This document shows, in pieces, positions 118 through 49,033 of a stretch of DNA of 64,000 nt (the first letter of the stretch is position 1; each line of letters opens with the position of its first letter). The DNA is taken from positions 558,001 to 622,000 of the forward strand of contig NZ_CP012069.2 in the NCBI RefSeq assembly GCF_001189515.2, given 5' to 3'. Source of the stretch: Olsenella sp. oral taxon 807 (GTDB lineage Bacteria; Actinomycetota; Coriobacteriia; Coriobacteriales; Atopobiaceae). Made by a program: the position numbers and the translations under genes. Below the pieces are notes generated by a model that saw only the letters and a list, made by a program, of their open reading frames with translations, had not been told where the DNA came from and searched no databases.

Positions 118-2421
118 ATGGCTGGACATGAGGGTAGAAGAGGTTTGCGTATTTCTTCTGCCGCACGGGTTGTGGGACTGGGACTTTCGGTGGCACTGAG
201 TCTTGGGGGCATTGTCGCCCTTCCATGTGTGGCTCGTGCCGAAACCGTCCCTCCTGCAGAAGAGAGAGTCGTCTCGGCCCATGACGGTGTCGCTACGGCG
301 ACGGGCGAGAAGACTGCGCAGGCGACTGAACGGGCATCGTCTATGGGCCACGCCGATGCAACGGGTCAGGCTGACGACGCTGGTCTTGACCCTGTCCGCA
401 GGAAGGGTCCCGGCGGTTCTGGTGGTGCTGCCTCTGCTGGGGCAAGTGCCAAGGGCGAGGGCAGCGACGGCTCAGCGGCGACGTCCGCTACGAGTACGGA
501 CGAGCCTGCGGCACATGGCGCGCGCGCAACGGACGCAGCCAGGGACAAGCCGGTGACATCCGCCACGAGAACAGGCGAGCCCGCGGCGGCCTGTGCCACG
601 TCCGCCACCGACGAGCCTGAGCACACCGACACGAAGCCATCCGCCGGAATGGTGGGTGAGGGGGTCGCCACCCATGCAGCGAGCCCGGCTTCGGGCGTTG
701 AGCCTGCCTCTGGCGCCACGACCACGACCCCATCAACGCAGGCGCCCTCATCTGCCACAAAGCCCCTGCCCTCGACAAAACCCAAACCTGCAACGGATGA
801 CACGTCTACTGCTCCGACTACCTATGCCAATGTGTATCGACTCTTCAACCAGTGGACCACCGAGCATCTCTACACAAGGGACCTCCACGAGGCACAGGGC
901 CTCATGAGGCTTGGCTGGAGCTGGGAGGGCGTCTCTTGGGTTACGCCGTCCGCAGGTACCTCAGTGTATCGCCTTTACAACAAGTGGTCTGGCGACCACC
1001 TCTACACCACCAAGAGGTCAGAGTATGACGGACTGGTCAAGAGGGGCTGGACCGGTGAGGACGTTCAGTTCTACGGCGAGGCCCCTAAAAACGGCGTCTC
1101 CATCTACCGGCTGTTCAACAAGTACGTGACAACGGGCACCCACTTGCTCACGAGTTCGACGTCTGAGGTCAAGGCCTGCGTGGGGAACGGTTGGCGCGAC
1201 GAGGGCACCGCATGGTACGCCGCCAAGCACGACCCCTTCTCCATTGCCGGTTTCTGGGTAGAGTGCGTTGACGGCAGGCGTCTTTGGGTTGACGCTACGT
1301 GTGCGCTCGCGAGTGGTAGGATCGTCGATCCTACGACATCGAGGGATAGGGGGGCTGGCAGGTACGCTTATGCCCGGCGTGACGGAGCCGTGGTGACGGA
1401 GCTTGCTGATGCCGGAAACGGCTGGTCGTACCTTGCGGACTCGCTGGGGGGACTCGTGCACCGAGCGGGCTCTGGCTGGGTCGTCACCAAGGACTGGCCT
1501 CGCTCCGACGCGCGTCTCCAGCGCTACTACACCAAGGACATGGGGGGATACAGTCTCGTGCGCCGTGGCGTCTTCTCTGCCAAGGATGACCTCGGCGAGC
1601 TGGCGTCCTACCTTGGTCGCACTGATACGGGCTACGTGCTGCGTGGGATCCTCTCCGCAGGTGGCGATTGGTCCTACCTTGCCGATGATGACGGTAGGCT
1701 CGTGCACCGAGCGGGCTCTGGCTGGGTCGTCACCAAGGACTGGCCCTACTCAGACGGACAGCTCCAGCGTTACTGGACCGAAGATAAGGGTGCCTATAGC
1801 CTGGTGAGAAACGGTCTCTTCTCGACGGGAGGCAAACGCTACTACGGACGTTACGACACGGGATACGTGGTCCGTGGTACCTATGTCATCAGTCGCTACT
1901 ATGGTCTTGACACCAGCGGCGCTGGCAATGACTGGAAGGATGACACCGTTGCGATCGCTGATAATGACGGCGTCCTCCTTACGCGCGAGCAAGTTGGCCA
2001 AAGACTTCTGGCCTCCGCGAGAAGCCAGGTTGGTTGTGACTACACCACTGATGACAGTGCGTACTATCCTGGACGGGCCTTCAACTGCTCAGGCCTCAGC
2101 TGGTGGGTCTTCAACGATGCGCTTGGGGTCAACCTCTCACACAACCAAGGGTACTACTCCTACTATGCGCGCCAGACCAACAAAGAGGACAGTCAGGTCT
2201 ATGGTGTCTTGAAACGTAATGGCTGGAAGACGGCCATACGTTCCCTACAGATAGGTGACCTCGTGTTCTTCTCGCCGATCGGCAAGAGGCTGCATACCGG
2301 CCACGTGGGGATCTACGTTGGTGATGGTACGATGATCGATGCCAACACCACCGGCGTCAAATATCGTCGGGTCCTCAAGAAGAGTTATGTCGGTGGTGGC
2401 TTCCCGATCACGCTCGTCTAG
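118..2421 (+). CDS. Secreted NlpC/P60 peptidoglycan hydrolase with DUF5648 repeats
   Basis: Predicted 767-residue cell-surface protein. An N-terminal signal peptide (about residues 10-42, ending near ALPCVARA) is followed by a long Ala/Thr/Ser-rich, probably disordered linker (about 45-235). Next come three DUF5648-type repeats (VYRLFNQWTTEHLY, VYRLYNKWSGDHLY, IYRLFNKYVTTGTHLL; about 238-385) and a region with two near-identical aromatic repeats (GLVHRAGSGWVVTKDWP). The C-terminal NlpC/P60 domain has catalytic Cys657 (FNCSGLSW) and His729 (TGHVGIYVG). The family cleaves peptide bonds in peptidoglycan stems; the repeats probably bind wall or host glycans. I chose the ATG at 118 because GGAGG lies about 8 bases upstream and the signal peptide starts there; an in-frame start at 43 would add 25 residues with no signal character. 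It stands alone. Confidence 0.9.
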   Translation: MAGHEGRRGLRISSAARVVGLGLSVALSLGGIVALPCVARAETVPPAEERVVSAHDGVATATGEKTAQATERASSMGHADATGQADDAGLDPVRRKGPGGSGGAASAGASAKGEGSDGSAATSATSTDEPAAHGARATDAARDKPVTSATRTGEPAAACATSATDEPEHTDTKPSAGMVGEGVATHAASPASGVEPASGATTTTPSTQAPSSATKPLPSTKPKPATDDTSTAPTTYANVYRLFNQWTTEHLYTRDLHEAQGLMRLGWSWEGVSWVTPSAGTSVYRLYNKWSGDHLYTTKRSEYDGLVKRGWTGEDVQFYGEAPKNGVSIYRLFNKYVTTGTHLLTSSTSEVKACVGNGWRDEGTAWYAAKHDPFSIAGFWVECVDGRRLWVDATCALASGRIVDPTTSRDRGAGRYAYARRDGAVVTELADAGNGWSYLADSLGGLVHRAGSGWVVTKDWPRSDARLQRYYTKDMGGYSLVRRGVFSAKDDLGELASYLGRTDTGYVLRGILSAGGDWSYLADDDGRLVHRAGSGWVVTKDWPYSDGQLQRYWTEDKGAYSLVRNGLFSTGGKRYYGRYDTGYVVRGTYVISRYYGLDTSGAGNDWKDDTVAIADNDGVLLTREQVGQRLLASARSQVGCDYTTDDSAYYPGRAFNCSGLSWWVFNDALGVNLSHNQGYYSYYARQTNKEDSQVYGVLKRNGWKTAIRSLQIGDLVFFSPIGKRLHTGHVGIYVGDGTMIDANTTGVKYRRVLKKSYVGGGFPITLV
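1453..1745 (+). repeat. Exact 47-bp direct repeat inside the NlpC/P60 gene
   Basis: Bases 1453-1499 and 1699-1745 are identical over 47 bp, 246 bp (82 codons) apart, and encode the same LVHRAGSGWVVTKDW segment. The surrounding repeat units differ at many codons, so exact identity here suggests recent duplication or gene conversion within the surface-repeat region. Confidence 0.85.
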
Positions 2422-2484
2422 CTCGGGATCTTTCCATTGGGGTTGTACCCTTTCGCAGATGACTGGTGGCTGTGTGCCACACGT

Positions 2485-2516
2485 GGCACCCGCGCTTCTG
2501 GAGATGCGCGGGTGCC
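2485..2516 (+). terminator. Hairpin after the NlpC/P60 gene
   Basis: GGCACCCGCGC (2485-2495) pairs perfectly with GCGCGGGTGCC (2506-2516) across a 10-nt loop. The following bases (cttgtgcc) are not a good U-tract, so termination strength is uncertain. It lies between the surface hydrolase and yebC. Confidence 0.5.
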
Positions 2517-2582
2517 CTTGTGCCAAGAGCCCCGCTTTGTGTATCATCTCTACGCTACACCGTTGTCAGAAGGAGAATCTGT

Positions 2583-3383
2583 ATGTCCGGACACTCTAAG
2601 TGGGCTACCACTAAGCATAAGAAGGCTGCGATTGACGCTAAGCGCTCCGCGCTCTTCTCCAAGCATTCGCGTAACATCACTGTTGCCGCCCGCAACGGAG
2701 GGGACCCCAACCCGGACAACAACGCCTCGCTTGCCGCAGCTGTCGCCCGCGCACGTATGGTCTCGATGCCTAACGCCAAGATCCAAGCGGCCATCGACAA
2801 GGCCTTTGGCACCGGCGCTGATGCCGTCGTCTACAAGGAGGTCACCTATGAGGGCTATGGCCCGGCCGGCGTGGCCCTCTACGTCGAGTGTCTGACCGAC
2901 AACCTCAACCGTACGGCTGCCGACGTTCGCTCTGCCTTCACCCATGCAGGTGGTAACCTCGGCACCTCTGGTTCTGTCTCCTTCCAGTTCATGCGCAAAG
3001 GTGCCCTCGCCGTCGACAAGGTTATCCGTAGCGATGACAAGAAGGTCCCCGACAGGGACAACGCGGTCGATGAGGATGAGTTCATGATGGCCGTCGCCGA
3101 GGCGGAGGGGGATGACTACGAGGACAATGGCGAGCAGTGGATCGTCTACACTGCCTACGACAGGATGCAGGACGTCCAGAAGGCCCTCGAGGCGCAGGGC
3201 ATAGAGGTCAAGGGCTCCGAGCTCACGATGGTCCCGACGACGCCGACCGAGCTCGAGCTTCCCGATGCCAGGAAGGTCCAACGTCTGGTTGACCGCCTCG
3301 AGGAGCTCGATGACGTCCAAAGCGTCTACAGCACCATGAGTGTCTCTGACGAGGTTGCCGAACAGCTCGCAGACGAGGAGTAG
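2583..3383 (+). CDS. yebC: YebC/PmpR family translation/transcription factor
   Basis: 266 residues opening with the family hallmark MSGHSKWATTKHKKAAIDAK and containing the internal YEGYGPAGVALYVE and GGNLGTSGSVSFQF motifs, so all three YebC domains are present and length is normal (about 240-270). Members are cytoplasmic; some were described as DNA-binding regulators and recent work links the family to ribosomes stalled on proline-rich sequences. The start at 2583 is fixed by AGAAGGAG eight bases upstream and by the conserved MSGHSKW start; the open frame extends upstream without support. In many bacteria yebC sits next to ruvC, which is not the case here. Confidence 0.95.
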   Translation: MSGHSKWATTKHKKAAIDAKRSALFSKHSRNITVAARNGGDPNPDNNASLAAAVARARMVSMPNAKIQAAIDKAFGTGADAVVYKEVTYEGYGPAGVALYVECLTDNLNRTAADVRSAFTHAGGNLGTSGSVSFQFMRKGALAVDKVIRSDDKKVPDRDNAVDEDEFMMAVAEAEGDDYEDNGEQWIVYTAYDRMQDVQKALEAQGIEVKGSELTMVPTTPTELELPDARKVQRLVDRLEELDDVQSVYSTMSVSDEVAEQLADEE

Positions 3384-3502
3384 CCCGGTCTCGGCGACCT
3401 GGCCCACTATCGCGTGCGATCGTATAGCTTGTTTGCGCAGGTGTGCCTTCGACGCGGCGGTGGCCGTCTTGGTCGCCGTCCTCATGGGGAGAGGCCTCAG
3501 GT

Positions 3503-4513
3503 ATGAGACAGGACATGACGCGTTCAGAGGCGGAGAGGGCACTTGGCCTTCCCGAGCGCTATGGCATGGCCGACGTCAGGCGTGCTTTCAAAGGACGTGC
3601 CCAGAGATACCATCCTGATAACGCTCGCAGGAACGGCTTCTCCGAGACGTTCGCTCAGCAGAAGATGACTGAGGTTAACAAGGCCTATGCGCTCCTGAAA
3701 CATCTCTTCGATGACGGAAGTGTCAAGACGCTTCGTCGCGACTCCAGCGGAGGGACCTATGGCAAGCACAGCGCGGGCGTCCATCATGCTCCGGCGGCTC
3801 GATCTAGGTCCGCCGTACGCACGCAAGTGGATGACTCGCTCTTCTGGGACGAGGACGGCAATCCCAGGAGTACCACTGCCGAGAACGAGGCTAACGCCGC
3901 CGCCGACGCATCCGGTCACACGTTGCGTCGCTTTCTTCTGGGTCCTGTGTTTTTGAGGCTCGTCTTCATTGCTGTTCTCGCCCTCATGTGGTGGCGGACC
4001 TTTCCTTTCGTCGGGGAAAACGCCGTTCATTTCGACATGGGTGCCCAGGTCCCTTTGAGGAACCTCGTCCCCGTGCTCATCGCCGTCGTATATCCGAGTT
4101 ACTTCTTGCTCTATGAGGTCATTACCGGAAACATCTCGGGAGTGTTTCGCGAGCTCATCAACGGCGTCGTTTCGATCATCACACGGACGCACATTGAGGT
4201 GCGCAAAAAGGGCAGCTACCGATCGAGTCTCTCGAGCCTGCTGAGAGACCAAATCTACAGTGTGCTTGAGCTCCCGCTTGCCGTTTGGCTATTTACGAGG
4301 GGAAGTGACCTGCCTAGCTCCATCGAACAGACCGTCTCGTTCGCGCTCGGGGCGATTGTCACCCTTGACGCGCTCATAGGTTTTTTTGGCTCGGGCGCCG
4401 CGCAGGGTCTCTCGCGCTGGTTGTCCGGTATCGTGGAGCGGCGCTATGTGACCATGCGCATGAACTTGCTCAAGCGCTGCGGGCAGTGGGCGAGCGACAG
4501 ATACGCTTCCTAG
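3503..4513 (+). CDS. Membrane-anchored J-domain protein
   Basis: 336 residues. An N-terminal J domain (about 5-75) carries the HPD motif at 37-39 (RYHPDNARRNG), needed to stimulate DnaK ATPase. A polar linker follows, then a C-terminal half with four hydrophobic segments (starting LRLVFIAVLALMWW, LVPVLIAVVYPSYFLL, YSVLELPLAVWLF and SFALGAIVTLDALIGFF). There is no Gly/Phe region, zinc finger or DnaJ C-terminal domain, so it is a type C co-chaperone that would recruit DnaK to the membrane. GGGGAGAGG precedes the ATG at 3503; an ATG at 3515 is also possible. It follows yebC with a gap of about 119 bases. Client unknown. Confidence 0.8.
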   Translation: MRQDMTRSEAERALGLPERYGMADVRRAFKGRAQRYHPDNARRNGFSETFAQQKMTEVNKAYALLKHLFDDGSVKTLRRDSSGGTYGKHSAGVHHAPAARSRSAVRTQVDDSLFWDEDGNPRSTTAENEANAAADASGHTLRRFLLGPVFLRLVFIAVLALMWWRTFPFVGENAVHFDMGAQVPLRNLVPVLIAVVYPSYFLLYEVITGNISGVFRELINGVVSIITRTHIEVRKKGSYRSSLSSLLRDQIYSVLELPLAVWLFTRGSDLPSSIEQTVSFALGAIVTLDALIGFFGSGAAQGLSRWLSGIVERRYVTMRMNLLKRCGQWASDRYAS

Positions 4514-25903: not shown

Positions 25904-26161
25904 CTCACGGTTAGCGCGCACGCAGACTGCGCCTTTTGGTGACGCCGCGACCGCAGACTGCGCTTTTTCGTTATGCCCCACATGCAGAATGCGCTTTTTC
26001 GTAGAGTGCGCCTTTCCTCACCTGGGCAAACGTGGCGCCACCTCACGGAAAAGCGCATTCTGGTCCAGACGCCTCACGGAAAAGCGCATTCTGTCCTGAT
26101 CGACTCACGGAAAGGCGCACTCTGCGATCCCCAGATCGCGCAAACTGCGCCTTTCCGTCAC
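25904..26161. repeat. Array of about eight 21-nt units in both orientations
   Basis: A unit close to CAGAATGCGCTTTTCCGTGA recurs in the gap between convergent gtfA and fruA. Forward copies start at 25923, 25954, 25985, 26003 and 26141. Reverse-complement copies lie at 26042-26062, 26073-26093 and 26104-26124. A degenerate reverse copy is at 25904-25921. Neighbouring units are 31, 31, 18, 31 and 31 bases apart where regular. Two reverse copies are identical over 21 nt. Confidence 0.85.
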
Positions 26162-26192: not shown

Positions 26193-26285
26193 CCCGCCAG
26201 GCTGCGGGGCACTATGGAAAGAGGCTCAACTGGGCAAATGCGCTCGAGCAACCCCCCCGCCAGCCTGCGGGGCGGGTTGTGCCAA
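26193..26285. repeat. Degenerate copies of the CCCGCCAG repeat family
   Basis: Two blocks of CCCGCCAG(G/C)CTGCGGGGC (starting about 26194 and 26257) flank CAACTGGGCAAATGCGC, the reverse complement of the TTTGCCCAGTTG module of the 79-bp element found at 46.9-48.9 kb. The modules are the same but their order and orientation differ, so this is a rearranged or relic member. Confidence 0.7.
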
Positions 26286-28750: not shown

Positions 28751-30901
28751 ATGTCCGAATACAAGTTCTGTCGCAGGTGCGGGACGCAACTCGGCCCTGA
28801 CGACAACTTTTGCACGGCGTGTGGGGCACCCACAGATGAGGACTTCTTGGTAGCGGGGGATGGTCTGCCGGTTATGCCGGTGGGTCAGGTTGCGCCCGAG
28901 GCCCCCTTGCCCGAGGCCGCTGCTCCCGTACCAGGTGCGCTCGACGTGGCGGCCGCGAGCGGAGAGACCGTGTCATCCGACAATCCGACGGCTATCTGGG
29001 GTGGGGCAGACACGGCCGCGATCCCCGAGCCTATGGCCCCCTCTGTGTCGCCAGCCATGGGTTGGGGTCCGTCCCCAGAGCAATCCGGTGTTGCGCCCGA
29101 TGCTGGCACCGTAGATACTCCCAGTGGTCCCCTTCCTGCCAGTGATGTCTTGGGTCCGTCAGACGTCTCAGGTGGCGCTGAAGCGTTCAACACAGATGGT
29201 ATTGCTAGCGCGAGCGCCCAGCCATTCGCTTTCGTTCCCCCATACGGTGGGGGTGTTACCGGGGCATCCGATGCCGTTGCCCAGGCACCTGTGACAGCCA
29301 CCTCGCCTTCGGATGCCGATATCTCTAGCGTGTCTGCTGATACTGATGATCGGTGGTTCGCTAAGGTACTTGACGTCGACGACGCGCCTGCAGCTTTCGC
29401 CTCAGCCTCCGGTGGCGACGCGCCCGCTGATGTGCCCGTCGACGCGCCCGCCCCGCCCGCTGATGCGCCCGTCGACGCGACTGTCCCGCCTGCAGCTTTC
29501 ACCTCAGCTTCCGGTGATGACGCGACTGTTCCGCCCGCTGACGCGCCCGCCATCCCGCCCGCAGCTTTCGCCGCAGCCTCCGGTGGCGACGCGCCCGCCT
29601 CGCCCGTAGACGCGCCCGCCCCGCCTGCGGCTTTCGCCTCAGCCTCCGGTGGCGACGCGCCCGCCTCGCCCGTAGACGCGCCCGTAGACGCGCCCGCCCC
29701 GCCTGCGGCTTTCGCCTCAGCCTCCGGTGGCGAGGCGCCCGCAGTCTCCGGTGGTGCCCCTATTCCATACCTCGGCGTCTCTGAGCCAGATACGAATGCT
29801 CCTGCCTCGTCTGCCAATGCACCCATCATGCCGGTAGACTTGCGGCCGACGGGAGACTCCCCGATGCCGGGAGCTTCGACCGCAGCTACTGTCGATTCAG
29901 CTGCCACGAGGAGATCTCCCAAAAGAAAGGTGGCGGCGGGCATTGGAGTGGTCCTCCTTGTCGTCTTAGCGGTACTTGGATTTTTTGTGTACAAGCATTC
30001 GCGTGAGGAGGCCGCACGCGACGCAATCGTTGCCACGACGCAATCCATGGTTGCATGTGACGAGGGTCTCCAGCGTCTCGATAGCGTTGCCGAGCTCAAC
30101 CACTCATACCTGCTCCCTGATAAGACCGACACGGCGAAAGCTGATAAGACCGACACGGCGAAACGCGGACTCGACGAGGCATCCTCCAGCTTGACTGACG
30201 CTCGCAGGAGCCTTGAGTCGGCGAAGTCTGATGGGTGGGCTCTTGATGATGACGCGAGGCATACCCTCGACGTGCTCCAGGATGGACTTGATGCCCGTAG
30301 AGGTATGATCGACGCCGGTAGCCAACTCGTTAACTCGCTGGCCGACGTCCAGTCGGCTGCAGAGGAGCTGGCTCACCTCATGGCAGATAGCTCGCTCTTC
30401 CTGGACTCATCCGATAATGCGGTGAACACCCTGAACAGCTCGTCGCGCTATATCGACCAGATCGACACTACGACTATGATAAACGACCTCGAGAGTGCCA
30501 AGAAGTACCAGGCCAGTATGTCGGATGACCTCAGGGCGGCGCGAGAGAAGCTCCCCTCGGCGAATCTCTCTAGCTATCAGACGACCGTCGAGAGGGCGAG
30601 CACCATGGTCACTGCGCTTCAAGATATCCTTGATGCCATACAGGCCCAGGATGCGGCGAAGGCCAATGATGCTGCCACGGCGCTCAATGCTGCGATCGAT
30701 TCGTTCAACGACGCACGCAGGGGGTTGCCTTCGTTGGCTGAGGGTATTGAGTCTCTCGTCCCAGACAACGCGAAAGGCTATGCTAAGGACTATCGCGCTC
30801 AGCGCGAGCGGGTGGTTGAGACGCTCGCGGAGCTGGGAGGCAATCCACTGACGAGGGACGTTGTGAACGGCTCGAAGCTTCTCCAGGGAAGTCATGCCTG
30901 A
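28751..30901 (+). CDS. Zinc-ribbon membrane protein with Ala/Pro minisatellite linker
   Basis: 716 residues. A zinc ribbon opens the protein (FCRRCGTQLGPDDNFCTACG, four cysteines). A long disordered Ala/Pro/Asp linker follows (about 35-390) with five copies of an AAFASASGGDAP-type unit, then one transmembrane helix (about 398-418, AAGIGVVLLVVLAVLGFFVY), and an outer domain of about 290 residues rich in helices and probably coiled coil. AAGGAG precedes the ATG at 28751. Similar zinc-ribbon-TM proteins are common in Coriobacteria and Firmicutes, with no fixed function. The orientation (ribbon inside, helical domain outside) is inferred. It stands alone. Confidence 0.75.
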   Translation: MSEYKFCRRCGTQLGPDDNFCTACGAPTDEDFLVAGDGLPVMPVGQVAPEAPLPEAAAPVPGALDVAAASGETVSSDNPTAIWGGADTAAIPEPMAPSVSPAMGWGPSPEQSGVAPDAGTVDTPSGPLPASDVLGPSDVSGGAEAFNTDGIASASAQPFAFVPPYGGGVTGASDAVAQAPVTATSPSDADISSVSADTDDRWFAKVLDVDDAPAAFASASGGDAPADVPVDAPAPPADAPVDATVPPAAFTSASGDDATVPPADAPAIPPAAFAAASGGDAPASPVDAPAPPAAFASASGGDAPASPVDAPVDAPAPPAAFASASGGEAPAVSGGAPIPYLGVSEPDTNAPASSANAPIMPVDLRPTGDSPMPGASTAATVDSAATRRSPKRKVAAGIGVVLLVVLAVLGFFVYKHSREEAARDAIVATTQSMVACDEGLQRLDSVAELNHSYLLPDKTDTAKADKTDTAKRGLDEASSSLTDARRSLESAKSDGWALDDDARHTLDVLQDGLDARRGMIDAGSQLVNSLADVQSAAEELAHLMADSSLFLDSSDNAVNTLNSSSRYIDQIDTTTMINDLESAKKYQASMSDDLRAAREKLPSANLSSYQTTVERASTMVTALQDILDAIQAQDAAKANDAATALNAAIDSFNDARRGLPSLAEGIESLVPDNAKGYAKDYRAQRERVVETLAELGGNPLTRDVVNGSKLLQGSHA
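29390..29745 (+). repeat. Coding minisatellite, GCAGCTTTCGCCTCAGCC units
   Basis: Five units encode AAF(A/T)(S/A)ASGG(D/E)AP followed by variable (A/V)DAP(A/V) spacers; unit lengths differ by multiples of three, so frame is kept. Long identical stretches between the third, fourth and fifth units point to recent slippage or recombination. Confidence 0.85.
30119..30163 (+). repeat. 24-bp tandem duplication in the outer domain
   Basis: A 21-bp block (GATAAGACCGACACGGCGAA plus A) at 30119-30139 recurs at 30143-30163, encoding DKTDTAK twice. In-frame and exact, so probably recent. Confidence 0.85.
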
Positions 30902-35913: not shown

Positions 35914-35976
35914 AAGGCGTTTGCCCAGTTGGGGCCAAAGCTATTGTGCCTCAGAACCTGCGGGGCATGGGTTAGG
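35914..35976. repeat. Relic of the CCCGCCAG repeat family
   Basis: AGGCGTTTGCCCAGTTGG (35914-35931) and CCTGCGGGGCATGGGTTAGG (from about 35957) match two modules of the 79-bp element at 46.9 kb, but in reversed order and separated by unrelated bases. Terminal CCCGCCAG arms are absent. Confidence 0.65.
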
Positions 35977-41913: not shown

Positions 41914-43536
41914 ATGACGCAGCTGACACAACCCGAGCCGTCTCCTAACCGTCGTAGGAGGTCGAGGGGCCAAGCGTGGTCCATGTCGTCACCTCAGGCG
42001 GCGCAATCGAGCGGTCCATCGCAACCGATGGGTTCAGATTGGCAGGCGCAGGTCACACAGCAGTCGGGACCGTCTGGGCAGCCAGATTCGTTCCAGCAGT
42101 CTCCGCAGCCAGACCCGATTGATCTTCTTGCTGCTCAGTTCTCCGAGGGGCAATCGACTGGGTCCTTTAGAGGAGCGCCCGTCGGTTACGGAGCGCCCGC
42201 CAGCGGCGGTTACGGAGCGCCCGCTGGCTACGGCATGTCCGCCAACGCCGGCTATGGCGCACCAACCGGCCGCTACGGAGCACCCGCCAACAACGGCAGC
42301 TACGGCGCGCCCGCCAGCAACGGCGCACCAACCGGCGGCTACGGCACGCCCGCCAACGGTGGTTACGGGGCGCCCGCCAACAACGGCCGCTACAGCGCGC
42401 CCGCTGGCTACGGCATGTCCGCCAACGGCGGTAGTTACGGAACGCCCGCCGGCTACGGCGCGCCCTACGGCGCTGGTGCTCCCAGTGGATATGGCTTTAC
42501 CGCACCCAATGGTTACGCTGGCGCGCCTGCGTCTACCAACAGATATGGCGCGACACGCGCCACGATGGGCTATGGCAGCTCCATGTCCTATGGGACCACG
42601 TACAGAGCGCCGCGTTACGGTGGACGTACCTGTGTCGCCGCCCTCATCTTGGGCTTCGTGGCAAGCTTTCACGGGGTTCTTCTCGGCGGTGGTCTCCTAT
42701 ATGGTTTGGGGCAGATATGGGGTCTATGGAAGACAACTGACGGATATCTTGTGACGATGCTTCCTCTCGAGTTGGGTGGAGTGATCGCTGCAGTCATCGC
42801 CTGCCATGCCTTGGGTGGGGCGAGCCTCATGAGACCACAACTTGCTTCCATTGTCGATACCTTTCACAGATTGCGCTGGCTTGTCGTGGTGTCTGGACTT
42901 GAGGTCGCGCTTCAGCTGCTTGCCTTTACGACGGGAGACTATTTTCTTAGCCCTAACTGGCCTCTCTACCTACTTCACATCTTGTTACTCTGTATGATGA
43001 TCGGCATGTTCGAGGAGATAGTGTTTCGTGGGATCATCCTAAACGGACTTCTTGCCCCCTTGGGGGAGCGACGCGATGGAGTTCTGAAGGCGCTCCTCAT
43101 CAGCTCGCTCCTTTTTGGTGCGGCGCATCTGATTGGGCAAGATACTGATTGGTCTGATAGGTTGCAAGCTACTCAAGCTATTCTCAAGGTCGCTCAGACC
43201 GGAGTCCTCGGTTTCGTGTTTGGTGTATGCGCCATACATCAGCGCAACCTTACGGGTGTGGCAGTCTTCCACGGGTTCACAGACTTTGTCCTCATGGTGC
43301 TTCCATACATGCTGAATGGGTCTGAGCAAGGTGAGGTGCAGTACGTTACAGCGGACAGTCAGGCCGCCATGACCACCATCGTAATGTACTCTGTGTTGAT
43401 CGCCCTGTATATTCCGGCCCTCGTCACCGCAATGCGAACGCTTCGCCAAGAGCAGCTGCCTCAGTGCGGCGAGTTCATGGATCCCTGTTGGACGAGTGCG
43501 GCGTTTGGAGCAAGGACAGCCTTCGCATACAGCTAG
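41914..43536 (+). CDS. CPBP family protease with GYGAPA-repeat N-terminus
   Basis: 540 residues. Residues 1-80 are Gln/Pro/Ser-rich. About 86-215 is a low-complexity region of more than a dozen GYGAPA(N/S)-type units, followed by about eight membrane segments with the CPBP motifs EEIVFRG (near 367-373), GAAHLIG and VFHGFTDF. The membrane half resembles the preceding gene, so the two are probably an ancient duplication. The disordered cytoplasmic extension is unusual for the family and may serve in localisation or clustering. Ribosome binding site CAAGGAG about five bases before the ATG. Confidence 0.85.
   Translation: MTQLTQPEPSPNRRRRSRGQAWSMSSPQAAQSSGPSQPMGSDWQAQVTQQSGPSGQPDSFQQSPQPDPIDLLAAQFSEGQSTGSFRGAPVGYGAPASGGYGAPAGYGMSANAGYGAPTGRYGAPANNGSYGAPASNGAPTGGYGTPANGGYGAPANNGRYSAPAGYGMSANGGSYGTPAGYGAPYGAGAPSGYGFTAPNGYAGAPASTNRYGATRATMGYGSSMSYGTTYRAPRYGGRTCVAALILGFVASFHGVLLGGGLLYGLGQIWGLWKTTDGYLVTMLPLELGGVIAAVIACHALGGASLMRPQLASIVDTFHRLRWLVVVSGLEVALQLLAFTTGDYFLSPNWPLYLLHILLLCMMIGMFEEIVFRGIILNGLLAPLGERRDGVLKALLISSLLFGAAHLIGQDTDWSDRLQATQAILKVAQTGVLGFVFGVCAIHQRNLTGVAVFHGFTDFVLMVLPYMLNGSEQGEVQYVTADSQAAMTTIVMYSVLIALYIPALVTAMRTLRQEQLPQCGEFMDPCWTSAAFGARTAFAYS
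42169..42559 (+). repeat. GYGAPA coding repeat
   Basis: In-frame repeats built from GGCTACGGCGCGCCCGCC-like units with alternating NNG or SGG spacers. Two blocks encode the same AGYGMSAN(A/G)G segment about 180 bp apart, indicating duplication of higher-order units as well as single ones. Confidence 0.85.
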
Positions 43537-46810: not shown

Positions 46811-46867
46811 GCGCTGGCGTGCGGTGGGCTGGTGCGGCCCGCCCGTCGGAACCTTCCGCCAGTCAGG

Positions 46868-46951
46868 CCCGCCAGGTCCCCGTTCGTCAGATCCCCCCGC
46901 CAGCCTGCGCCCGCCAGGTCCCCGTTCGCCAGATCCCCCCGCCAGCCTGCG
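46868..46951. repeat. 42-bp direct repeat ahead of the 125-bp array
   Basis: CCCGCCAGGTCCCCGTTCG begins at 46868 and 46910, each followed by (T/C)CAGATCCCCCCGCCAGCC. The second copy merges into the first 79-bp element. It suggests the element has been extended by local duplication. Confidence 0.8.
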
Positions 46952-47266
46952 GGGCACTAACCCAACGACGTTTGCCCAGTTGGCGAGAAAAAGAAGGTAC
47001 CCGGGAATCTGGCGGGCGGTTCCGGTGGCGTCGGACGGCCGTGGAAGCGGAACCGGTTAGTGCCCGCCAGCCTGCGGGGCACTAACCCAACGGCGTTTGC
47101 CCAGTTGGCGAGAAAAAGAAGGTACCCGGGAATCTGGCGGGCGGTTCCGGTGGCGTCGGACGGCCGTGGAAGCGGAACCGGTTAGTGCCCGCCAGCCTGC
47201 GGGGCACTAACCCAACGGCGTTTGCCCAGTTGGCGAGAAAAAGAAGGTACCCGGGAATCTGGCGGG
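46938..47266 (+). repeat. Three copies of a 79-bp element, 125-bp period
   Basis: Copies at 46938-47016, 47063-47141 and 47188-47266. Each begins CCCGCCAG and ends CTGGCGGG (perfect 8-bp terminal inverted repeats), and contains CCAAC...GTTGG as an inner hairpin, TTTGCCCAGTTGGCGAG and AAAAAGAAGGTACCCGGGAA. Copies two and three look identical; copy one differs at one base in ACGACG. The 46-bp spacer between them is also conserved. The whole fills the gap between convergent DegV and the orphan gene. Confidence 0.92.
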
Positions 47267-47353
47267 CGGTTCGGTCCGCCGTGGCGGGCGGTTCGGGTGG
47301 CGTCGGGCGGCCAAGAGAGAGGGGGGCGGTTGCAGACCGGTGGCTCATCTGCC

Positions 47354-48472
47354 TCACCTGCTTTTGTGCCGCGCTAACAGTTCCTGCAGCGTTCGTGCTC
47401 TGAGCGCCGTGAGCCGTGGATCCTCAAGAGCCGCTCTCTGCGTGTTGAACCGTCTGCCCACCAGTCGCTCAAGGCGGGCGATGAGTTGTGCCATGAGCAG
47501 ATCGAGGGCATCAATTCCAGAAATGTCCTCGTTGGTCACTACAGGTACCTCAAGTCCAGCAACCAACAGGTCGCGGTCCCGTCGCCGATCGTCCACGTAC
47601 TTCTTACGAACCTGTTGACGCAGCTGCTCGACGACCGCTGCCATGCGTGAACTTCCAGGATCTGCGCCAAGGCCAAGGGTCGCGCGCTCGAGTCCGACGA
47701 GGTTTAGATGGTCACTTCCATCGTAATTAAGAGCGAGAGGCGTGTCGTCAAACACGATGTCGGGTACACGGGACGAGCGAGTCATTGGAAGCCCGCCGCT
47801 CGACTGTATACGTGGATTCAAGGTTACGGGACCGAGTCCATAGCCGCCCTCCCCTGGCGAGAGCATGATCATCGTAGCAAGCACCGCCTCCTGAGGAGAC
47901 CATGCATTGGGGCGAGAGAGGATAGTCGCGCGGGTCGCAAGGCGGGTTGCCCTGCTCTGTGGCAGCTGGAGGAGCTGGAGCAGTAGCACGTCCTTGTTTA
48001 CAAAAGGCTTGATGCTGAAGTTAGCCTGTTCGCCTGCGATGCCAAAAGGTCCCAACGCATAGCTTCCCTCAAGCTCGGTTGCAAGGCTGATGAGTTGTGG
48101 CAGGGAGAGCCTTTCGGTAAGTTGCGTGAGCGTGAGGGCGGCATTACATACATATGTTGCTGGGGCTAGCTCAAGAAAGTACTGACCCTTTGGCCTCGGG
48201 CGAGAAACCCGTCCGCGCAGGATCTGTGTCTTGGGTCTTCCCGCCTTATCGCTGCAAAGCACCGTAAGACCACGCTTCATCCATGCGCCGGGTATCTCTT
48301 GAATGCCGATCGCCTGCATCCGCTTCTTGAGCTCAGCGGATGTCCACGGACGAGAGCGGCCAGTACACGTTGGATGGAACGTCTGGTCCTGTGGCGGCCC
48401 CTGCTTTGGGTGGCTGCGCCTCCAGGCACGAATGAGCGCAAGGGACGTGGTATGTGAGAATGTGATGTCCAT
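47354..48472 (-). CDS. Orphan protein with possible nuclease-like motif
   Basis: 372 residues, not assigned to a family. The N-terminal half is basic and contains ILRGRVSRPRPKGQYFLE. Residues 237-255 read PDIVFDDTPLALNYDGSDH, a pattern like the Asp...Glu/Asn-x-Asp-Gly-x-x-His core of DUF559/Vsr-type endonuclease folds, with Asn in the usual Glu position. The C-terminus is Arg-rich and helical (RRRDRDLL, LIARLERLVGRRF). The ribosome binding site is poor (GAGGT almost touching the ATG). Inverted copies of the 79-bp element lie on both sides. Function unknown; nuclease is only a suggestion. Confidence 0.65.
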   Translation of the reverse strand: MDITFSHTTSLALIRAWRRSHPKQGPPQDQTFHPTCTGRSRPWTSAELKKRMQAIGIQEIPGAWMKRGLTVLCSDKAGRPKTQILRGRVSRPRPKGQYFLELAPATYVCNAALTLTQLTERLSLPQLISLATELEGSYALGPFGIAGEQANFSIKPFVNKDVLLLQLLQLPQSRATRLATRATILSRPNAWSPQEAVLATMIMLSPGEGGYGLGPVTLNPRIQSSGGLPMTRSSRVPDIVFDDTPLALNYDGSDHLNLVGLERATLGLGADPGSSRMAAVVEQLRQQVRKKYVDDRRRDRDLLVAGLEVPVVTNEDISGIDALDLLMAQLIARLERLVGRRFNTQRAALEDPRLTALRARTLQELLARHKSR

Positions 48473-49033
48473 ACCTCATGCTACTTTTTCTGGCATGAAG
48501 AGAGAACCCGCAGCTAGACGCTTGTTTTGTGCAACATTCACGTGGGATGCAAACGGGGTATGTGAAACACCAGGATAGCTGTCGGGCGGGACTATCGTGG
48601 CGCACTACAAGGAGGCGATGTACCAGCGCACCTACAAAACATGATGCTTTGTGATGATATATGAGCACTTGCTGAGTGACAATCGGTAGACGGTATGAGA
48701 TGAGGGGTGAACGGCAGCCTCCCGCCACGGCGACTCGCCCGAACCGCCACGGCGGTCCGAACCGCCGCCCGATGTGGCCCGAACCACCCGCCAGATTCCC
48801 GGGTACCTTCTTTTTCTCGCCAACTGGGCAAACGCCGCTGGGTTAGTGCCCCGCAGGCTGGCGGGCACTAACGCCCCCCACGCCCCCACCCCCCTCTGGG
48901 TGGCCCAATCTCTGCCGTCCGTCCGATTCGAGGAAATTTGCCTCTTGAGGACACCTGCGTTTCATGCGATGCTTGGAAAGGGAAGCTGGCCTCGTTCGGT
49001 TTCCATAGACCAGCTAAGTGAAAGGGTTATGCT
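48473..49033. other. Gap holding an inverted 79-bp element
   Basis: 561 bases between the divergent orphan gene and the iron/phosphonate binding-protein gene. It holds GAACCGCC/CCACGGCGG blocks (48720-48786) matching, in reverse, the sequence at about 47267-47320, then the element at 48787-48865. A nine-codon ORF with a strong AAGGAGG at 48618-48644 may be a gene-start remnant. No RNA gene was recognised. Confidence 0.5.
48787..48865 (-). repeat. Inverted copy of the 79-bp element
   Basis: Read on the minus strand it is the same 79-bp element with both CCCGCCAG/CTGGCGGG ends, differing from the 47-kb copies by one or two bases (AGCGGCG for AACGGCG). It lies in opposite orientation, on the other side of the orphan gene. 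Confidence 0.92.

What the first reader, a model, noticed from the sequence alone, without database searches (positions are those of the whole stretch)
46868..48865. 79-bp terminal-inverted-repeat element in array and inverted copy around an orphan gene
Three near-identical copies with a 125-bp period lie on one side of a gene of unknown function, and an inverted copy on the other. The 8-bp ends (CCCGCCAG/CTGGCGGG) and an inner CCAAC/GTTGG stem suggest a MITE-like or structured RNA element. No transposase is present, so movement would need a partner elsewhere.
Basis: partly seen in the sequence, partly recalled or inferred. Interest (0 to 1): 0.8.

Follow-up and report, generated by a model that had tools for sequence, protein, structure and literature searches.

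The report
Repeat element with built-in nuclease partner
The 79-base repeat belongs to a mobile-looking DNA family scattered through one family of gut bacteria, and the "orphan" gene it surrounds encodes an unclassified DNA-cutting-enzyme-like protein that is probably its partner, which would be a new way for bacteria to carry parasitic repeats.

Summary
Three 79-bp copies with a 125-bp period and one inverted copy flank a 372-aa gene.

The unit is a dispersed element: a 14-bp core, CAACTGGGCAAACG, between two inverted arms. This genome holds 94 exact cores (CAACTGGGCAAAYG); 60 of 140 family genomes have a core and almost none outside do. The core is fixed across genera while the arms are unrelated between lineages. 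Arm symmetry relative to the core falls at about 10.25-bp steps, which suggests double-stranded DNA rather than RNA.

The "orphan" gene is not incidental. It belongs to a paralogous family with no Pfam, NCBIfam or PADLOC match. The predicted structure joins an AbiEi-antitoxin-like domain to a Vsr/EDxHD-homing-endonuclease-like domain. Members across genera lie between two copies of such elements, each lineage with its own arms, and dispersed copies in the same genome usually share those arms.

Related species differ in presence, type and gene content at the same sites (full unit, solo element, or neither).

Best reading: a REPIN/RAYT-like selfish system with an unrelated EDxHD-type nuclease as partner. 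The pairing is well supported. That the nuclease moves the element is inferred; no target duplication or activity was shown. The 8-bp ends, inner stem and RNA idea are not general.

The parts
46938..47016 (-). Element copy 1 (79 bp); core CAACTGGGCAAACG at 46969-46982 on the minus strand
47063..47141 (-). Element copy 2; core at 47094-47107 (minus)
47188..47266 (-). Element copy 3; core at 47219-47232 (minus)
48787..48865 (+). Element copy 4, inverted; core at 48821-48834 (plus)
47354..48472 (-). 372-aa 'orphan' gene: AbiEi-like domain (about 1-190) plus Vsr/EDxHD-nuclease-like domain (about 187-341); proposed partner of the element
46867..46950 (.). Two 42-bp direct repeats (98 percent alike) made of arm-like sequence (CCCGCCAG) next to copy 1
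26019..26032 (+). Variant core CACCTGGGCAAACG between inverted period-31 arm arrays (25921-26002 and 26041-26124): another member of the same element class
26227..26240 (+). Further core CAACTGGGCAAATG with GC-rich inverted arms
35918..35931 (-). Further exact core with degenerate arms

Best explanation
The unit is one copy of a short non-coding selfish element made of arm, spacer, fixed 14-bp core, spacer and inverted arm. The gene it surrounds is the cognate resident partner, an AbiEi-domain plus Vsr/EDxHD-type nuclease. Proposed mechanism (inferred): two copies of the nuclease bind the two inverted arms, whose sequence is specific to each nuclease lineage, and engage the invariant core on a fixed face of the helix. 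They nick or cut there, and copying or repair spreads the element to other intergenic sites. The gene itself stays low in copy number between two element copies. Shown: the anatomy, dispersal, core/arm rule, helical phasing, gene sandwiching, arm-partner matching in most genomes tested, and site polymorphism between species. Inferred: DNA binding and cleavage, and that the nuclease is what moves the element.
For: Dispersed, family-restricted invariant core. Inverted arms in 61/80 mutually dissimilar loci against 2.5 expected, with symmetry axis phased at about 10.25 bp. Genes of this family lie between two cores in G000, G016, G115/G122 and G019, and paired flanking repeats are found in 25/47 and 10/20 further members against 2/39 ordinary genes. 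Degenerate core near 13/50 members, reversed control 0/50. Flanking elements match dispersed elements of the same genome in G000, G122, G115, G014, G019 and G028. Full unit, solo element or neither at one site, and different elements at the same site in sister species. Structure: Vsr Z 8.9, I-Bth0305I Z 8.8; AbiEi Z 6.6; EDxHD residues conserved; dN/dS 0.26. I-Bth0305I dimerises on a target of nearly 60 bp (PMC3943268); AbiEi binds 23-bp inverted repeats (PMC7319586).
Against: No cleavage, binding or transposition shown. No clean insertion junction or target duplication found. Only 4-5 genera show exact cores on both sides of the gene, and about half of the family members show no significant flanking repeat. 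In G016 and G121 the few same-genome dispersed copies tested do not match the flanking ones, and in G028 only 1 of 11 does. G028 arm types other than one have no identified partner gene. The genomes first searched for paralogues were partly chosen because they had adjacency. The N-terminal region lacks the winged helix with which AbiEi binds DNA.
Confidence: 0.6

Rival explanations
1. Operator model: the element is the DNA-binding site of an AbiEi-like regulator (nuclease fold used for binding or inactive). Copies on both sides of the gene and elsewhere are operators or a nucleoid-type binding network, and they spread by selection or recombination rather than by the protein's nuclease.
For: AbiEi binds pairs of 23-bp inverted repeats, spaced 3 bp or, in Rv2827c, 13 bp apart (PMC7319586), which resembles the arms and the 10-bp steps. 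A real AbiEi/AbiEii operon is flanked by element copies in G087.
Against: Copies avoid divergent (promoter) regions, 12 versus 45 convergent. Copies lie on both sides of the gene, sites differ between sister species, and EDxHD residues are conserved. The AbiEi winged helix is absent from the model.
Confidence: 0.2
2. MITE model: the elements are moved by a conventional transposase encoded elsewhere, and the nuclease gene is a passenger or a neighbour in tolerant intergenic space.
For: Terminal inverted arms, small size, intergenic dispersal. Two IS200-type tnpA genes exist in the genome.
Against: The Y1 genes carry their own hairpin ends and no core nearby. Flanking of one gene family across genera, with lineage-specific arms, is not expected of passengers. 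No transposase carrying the core was seen, though not all transposase families were searched.
Confidence: 0.12
3. Structured RNA or bidirectional terminator: the arms form hairpins in transcripts and the core is a conserved loop.
For: Arms in some genomes are terminator-like hairpins with T-runs beside the core (L067). The copies favour gene 3' ends.
Against: Fold z-score -1.29, no Rfam hit, no strand preference, 10-bp quantised geometry, and the inner stem is not conserved.
Confidence: 0.05

Closest known systems
REPINs with REP-associated tyrosine transposases (RAYTs), PMC3116915
   Same: Short extragenic palindromic elements in inverted pairs, many copies per genome, genome-specific sequences, tandem clusters next to a low-copy partner gene flanked by the elements.
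   Different: The partner is an AbiEi/EDxHD-type nuclease fold, not a Y1 HUH transposase. A 14-bp core is conserved across genera while arms vary; REPINs conserve the palindrome.
EDxHD homing endonucleases (I-Bth0305I) and Vsr
   Same: Predicted catalytic fold and E-D-x-H-D residues; I-Bth0305I dimerises on an unusually long target (PMC3943268).
   Different: Here the nuclease domain is fused to an AbiEi-like domain, is not intron-borne, and is paired with dispersed non-coding elements.
AbiE type IV toxin-antitoxin system (AbiEi)
   Same: N-terminal half resembles the AbiEi C-terminal domain (Z 6.6); AbiEi binds long inverted repeats (PMC7319586).
   Different: No winged helix and no AbiEii toxin next to the window gene; a nuclease domain is added.
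MITEs
   Same: Short, non-coding, with terminal inverted repeats and dispersed copies.
   Different: A central core is conserved rather than the ends; no target duplication found; no DDE transposase identified.

Membership tests
REPIN/RAYT | Extragenic palindromic repeats in inverted pairs, many copies per genome | tested here: met
REPIN/RAYT | Partner gene in low copy, flanked by the repeats | tested here: met
REPIN/RAYT | Partner is a Y1 (HUH) tyrosine transposase | tested here: not met
   The enclosed gene has a Vsr/AbiEi-like model; the two PF01797 genes of the genome are not linked to cores
MITE | Short non-coding element with terminal inverted repeats | tested here: met
MITE | Target-site duplication | tested here: inconclusive
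   No clean filled/empty pair at base resolution
MITE | Ends shared with an autonomous DDE-type transposon | not tested
   Only PF01797 was searched as a transposase family
EDxHD homing endonuclease | Vsr-like fold with conserved E, D, H, D | tested here: met
   the fold is from a predicted model, Z 8.8-8.9
EDxHD homing endonuclease | Site-specific DNA cleavage that drives gene homing | not testable with these tools
   needs biochemistry
AbiE toxin-antitoxin | AbiEi C-terminal domain fold | tested here: inconclusive
   6y8q_A Z 6.6 over 118 residues, 1zel Z 4.7; no Pfam match to AbiEi_1
AbiE toxin-antitoxin | Adjacent AbiEii nucleotidyltransferase toxin gene | tested here: not met
   Genes next to the window gene are DegV and a solute-binding protein
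Structured RNA family | Match to a known family or fold better than shuffled sequence | tested here: not met

The most novel reading that the evidence does not exclude
A new class of bacterial mobile system: an AbiEi-domain/EDxHD nuclease family that spreads its own short palindromic elements. It uses an invariant 14-bp core plus lineage-specific inverted arms held in helical register, and diversifies by swapping arms while keeping the core. Paired elements can also carry cargo such as toxin-antitoxin operons.
Probability: 0.4. Interest if true: 0.9.

Novelty: new variant of a known kind. Interest (0 to 1): 0.8.

Why it matters
Short palindromic repeats are common in bacterial genomes, and the known partner enzymes are HUH transposases (RAYTs). 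Here an unrelated, unannotated gene family shows the same pairing with repeats, which suggests that more than one kind of nuclease has founded such systems. The rule 'fixed core, free arms, helical register' makes sharp, testable predictions. It would also give a role to a gene family of 4-15 copies per genome that the libraries searched do not name.

Tried and rejected
- Structured RNA: rejected on fold statistics, lack of strand bias and 10-bp quantised geometry.
- RAYT as partner: the two Y1 hits are IS200-like and unlinked.
- CRISPR-like or TIGR-like reading of the period-31 arrays: not pursued; the repeated units are arms inverted about the core.
- Literature search for the core sequence: only chance matches; Olsenella with REP: none.
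- Pfam, NCBIfam and PADLOC for the gene: nothing.
- Genome-wide scan with the window protein alone found no relative; a closer subfamily alignment found 56 loci.
- Target duplications: looked for at the hisF-hisI site, the solo site and one polymorphic site; no clean junction.
- The first neighbour clustering could have been a coincidence of an abundant gene family; the flank tests with ordinary-gene controls were made to check that.
- The strong flank match of L181 is a duplicated tRNA gene, not an element, and was discounted.

Full report
OBSERVATION. A 21-mer of the unit is found 4 times against 0 in 100 shuffles. They enclose a 372-aa gene on the minus strand, 47354-48472.

THE UNIT IS A DISPERSED FAMILY. 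A 125-bp query gives 51 matches in the 3.2-Mb genome. Reading those places shows a constant 14-bp core, CAACTGGGCAAACG, between two inverted arms. The pattern CAACTGGGCAAAYG occurs 94 times exactly in this genome and its reversed control 0 times. Related genomes hold 33 (G014), 28 (G028) or a few copies, and many hold none. In all, 60 of 140 genomes of the family have the exact CAACTGGGCAAACG core. Outside the family about 6 of some 285 sampled genomes have one, which is control level.

CONSTANT CORE, FREE ARMS. Across genera the core is identical while the arms are unrelated: CCCGCCAG type here, AAAGTGCACACGCAACG in G004, GTCCAACGCGT arrays in G028, AAGGATCCTTTGACGTTATTGG in G014 and others. 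In 80 mutually dissimilar loci, 61 have inverted arms at score 10 or more, against 2.5 expected from mismatched flanks. The position of the symmetry axis relative to the core is not free. The difference of the two arm-core distances is -3 or -4 in 34 of the 58 loci scoring 11 or more, with minor peaks at +7, -14/-15, +16 and +27. The best-fitting period is about 10.25 bp, also among the minor peaks alone. Some of the far peaks come from arrays with a ~30-bp period, so the independent support rests mainly on +7, -14/-15 and +16. This points to proteins on double-stranded DNA. RNA evidence is absent: fold z -1.29, no Rfam match, no strand preference. The elements favour convergent over divergent intergenic regions, 45 to 12. 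Gene calls here were made with a home-made coding model and are approximate.

THE ENCLOSED GENE. Clustering the neighbours of 147 core loci gave, as its largest group, relatives of the window gene. Twelve genomes hold 4 to 15 paralogues each. The relatives lie between two cores in G000 (window), G016, G115/G122 and G019, and other paralogues carry variant cores on one or both sides, such as CAACAGGCCAAACG twice in L191. A second core type, TACCTGCGGAAACG, differs at 4 of 14 positions and flanks others. Because the first alignment was built from core-adjacent members, less biased tests were added. For 20 further members, 10 share a repeat between their two flanks at score 39 or more, against 2 of 39 ordinary genes. 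For 47 members from a scan of named genomes it is 25 of 47, p about 1e-6; these come from one subclade and include some orthologues. A degenerate core is found near 13 of 50 members and its reversed form near none. Core-flanked members are scattered over the tree of the family, so the pairing looks old.

ARM-PARTNER MATCHING. Elements flanking the gene match dispersed elements of the same genome far better than those of other genera in G000, G122, G115, G014, G019 and G028. In G016 and G121 the few same-genome copies tested did not match, and in G028 only 1 of 11 did. The G121 flanking element instead matches the hisF elements of G131/G132.

MOBILITY. At the hisF-hisI site of one genus, elements are present in G131, G127, G134 and G132, reduced to one arm in G135, and absent in most others. 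Both arms changed together from GCGGCCGC to GAGGCCTC. Where G122 and G115 have element-gene-element, G137 has a single element of the same type with flanks 95 and 88 percent identical. The same 79-80 bp unit occurs at several other sites and homology ends at the arms. One site has this element in G122 and a different element in G115; another has three unrelated elements or none in different species. No clean junction or target duplication was obtained, and solo versus full cannot be polarised.

THE PROTEIN. It has no match in Pfam, NCBIfam or PADLOC. The predicted model is confident (pLDDT 91). Residues 152-339 align best with Vsr (1cw0, Z 8.9) and the I-Bth0305I catalytic domain (3r3p, Z 8.8), and TnsA appears at Z 5.3. 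Foldseek alone gave nothing below E 0.001. Residues 1-190 align with the AbiEi antitoxin, residues 67-195 (6y8q, Z 6.6), and Rv2827c (1zel, Z 4.7), the only entries listed. E195, D238 and D295 are invariant or nearly so, with a histidine at 255 or 256, which is the EDxHD pattern. dN/dS between the G115 and G122 genes is 0.26. I-Bth0305I is reported to dimerise on a target of nearly 60 bp (PMC3943268), and AbiEi to bind 23-bp inverted repeats spaced 3 or, in a relative, 13 bp apart (PMC7319586). A true AbiEi/AbiEii operon in G087 is flanked by direct copies of the element with 24-bp arms.

MECHANISM AND STATUS. I conclude that the element and the enclosed nuclease-like gene are a pair. The likeliest working is arm-specific binding by two nuclease copies with engagement of the core in helical register, cutting, and spread by repair or copying. 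Pairing and anatomy are shown by sequence comparison; cutting and movement are inference. It works like REPIN/RAYT (PMC3116915) but is not a member, since the partner is not a Y1 transposase.

Noticed in passing
L210 (G087 C31:29800-36000), 1991-4170: A genuine AbiEi/AbiEii toxin-antitoxin operon lies between direct copies of a core element with 24-bp arms: possible cargo, or a hint that AbiEi-type domains and these elements belong together.
   Followed up: partly
Window 25921-26124; also many G000 loci such as L059: Arrays of CCTCACGGAAAAGCGCATTCTG with a 31-bp period lie inverted on both sides of a variant core CACCTGGGCAAACG; no partner gene was found for this arm type.
   Followed up: partly
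G000 loci L031, L037, L040, L042, L054: Larger nested elements of about 400 bp contain the core, two sets of inverted arms and a shared right part that ends near AAGGAGGTGCCGGGAACTCAGG.
   Followed up: no
L061 (G000 C1:1897213) and L062 (G000 C1:2547829): Two near-identical IS200-type elements with subterminal hairpins; not linked to the cores.
   Followed up: partly
L195, L268, L265, L266, L305: A second core type (TACCTGCGGAAACG / CCGCAGGTA) in elements flanking other members of the gene family.
   Followed up: partly
hisF-hisI intergenic region, L225-L254: In G132 the left arm overlaps the hisF stop region (GACTTTTGAGG), which may hint at target choice by similarity to the arm.
   Followed up: no
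Window 29416-29742 and 42172-42465: GC-rich tandem repeats; the second lies in the N-terminal part of the 540-aa ORF 41914-43536.
   Followed up: no
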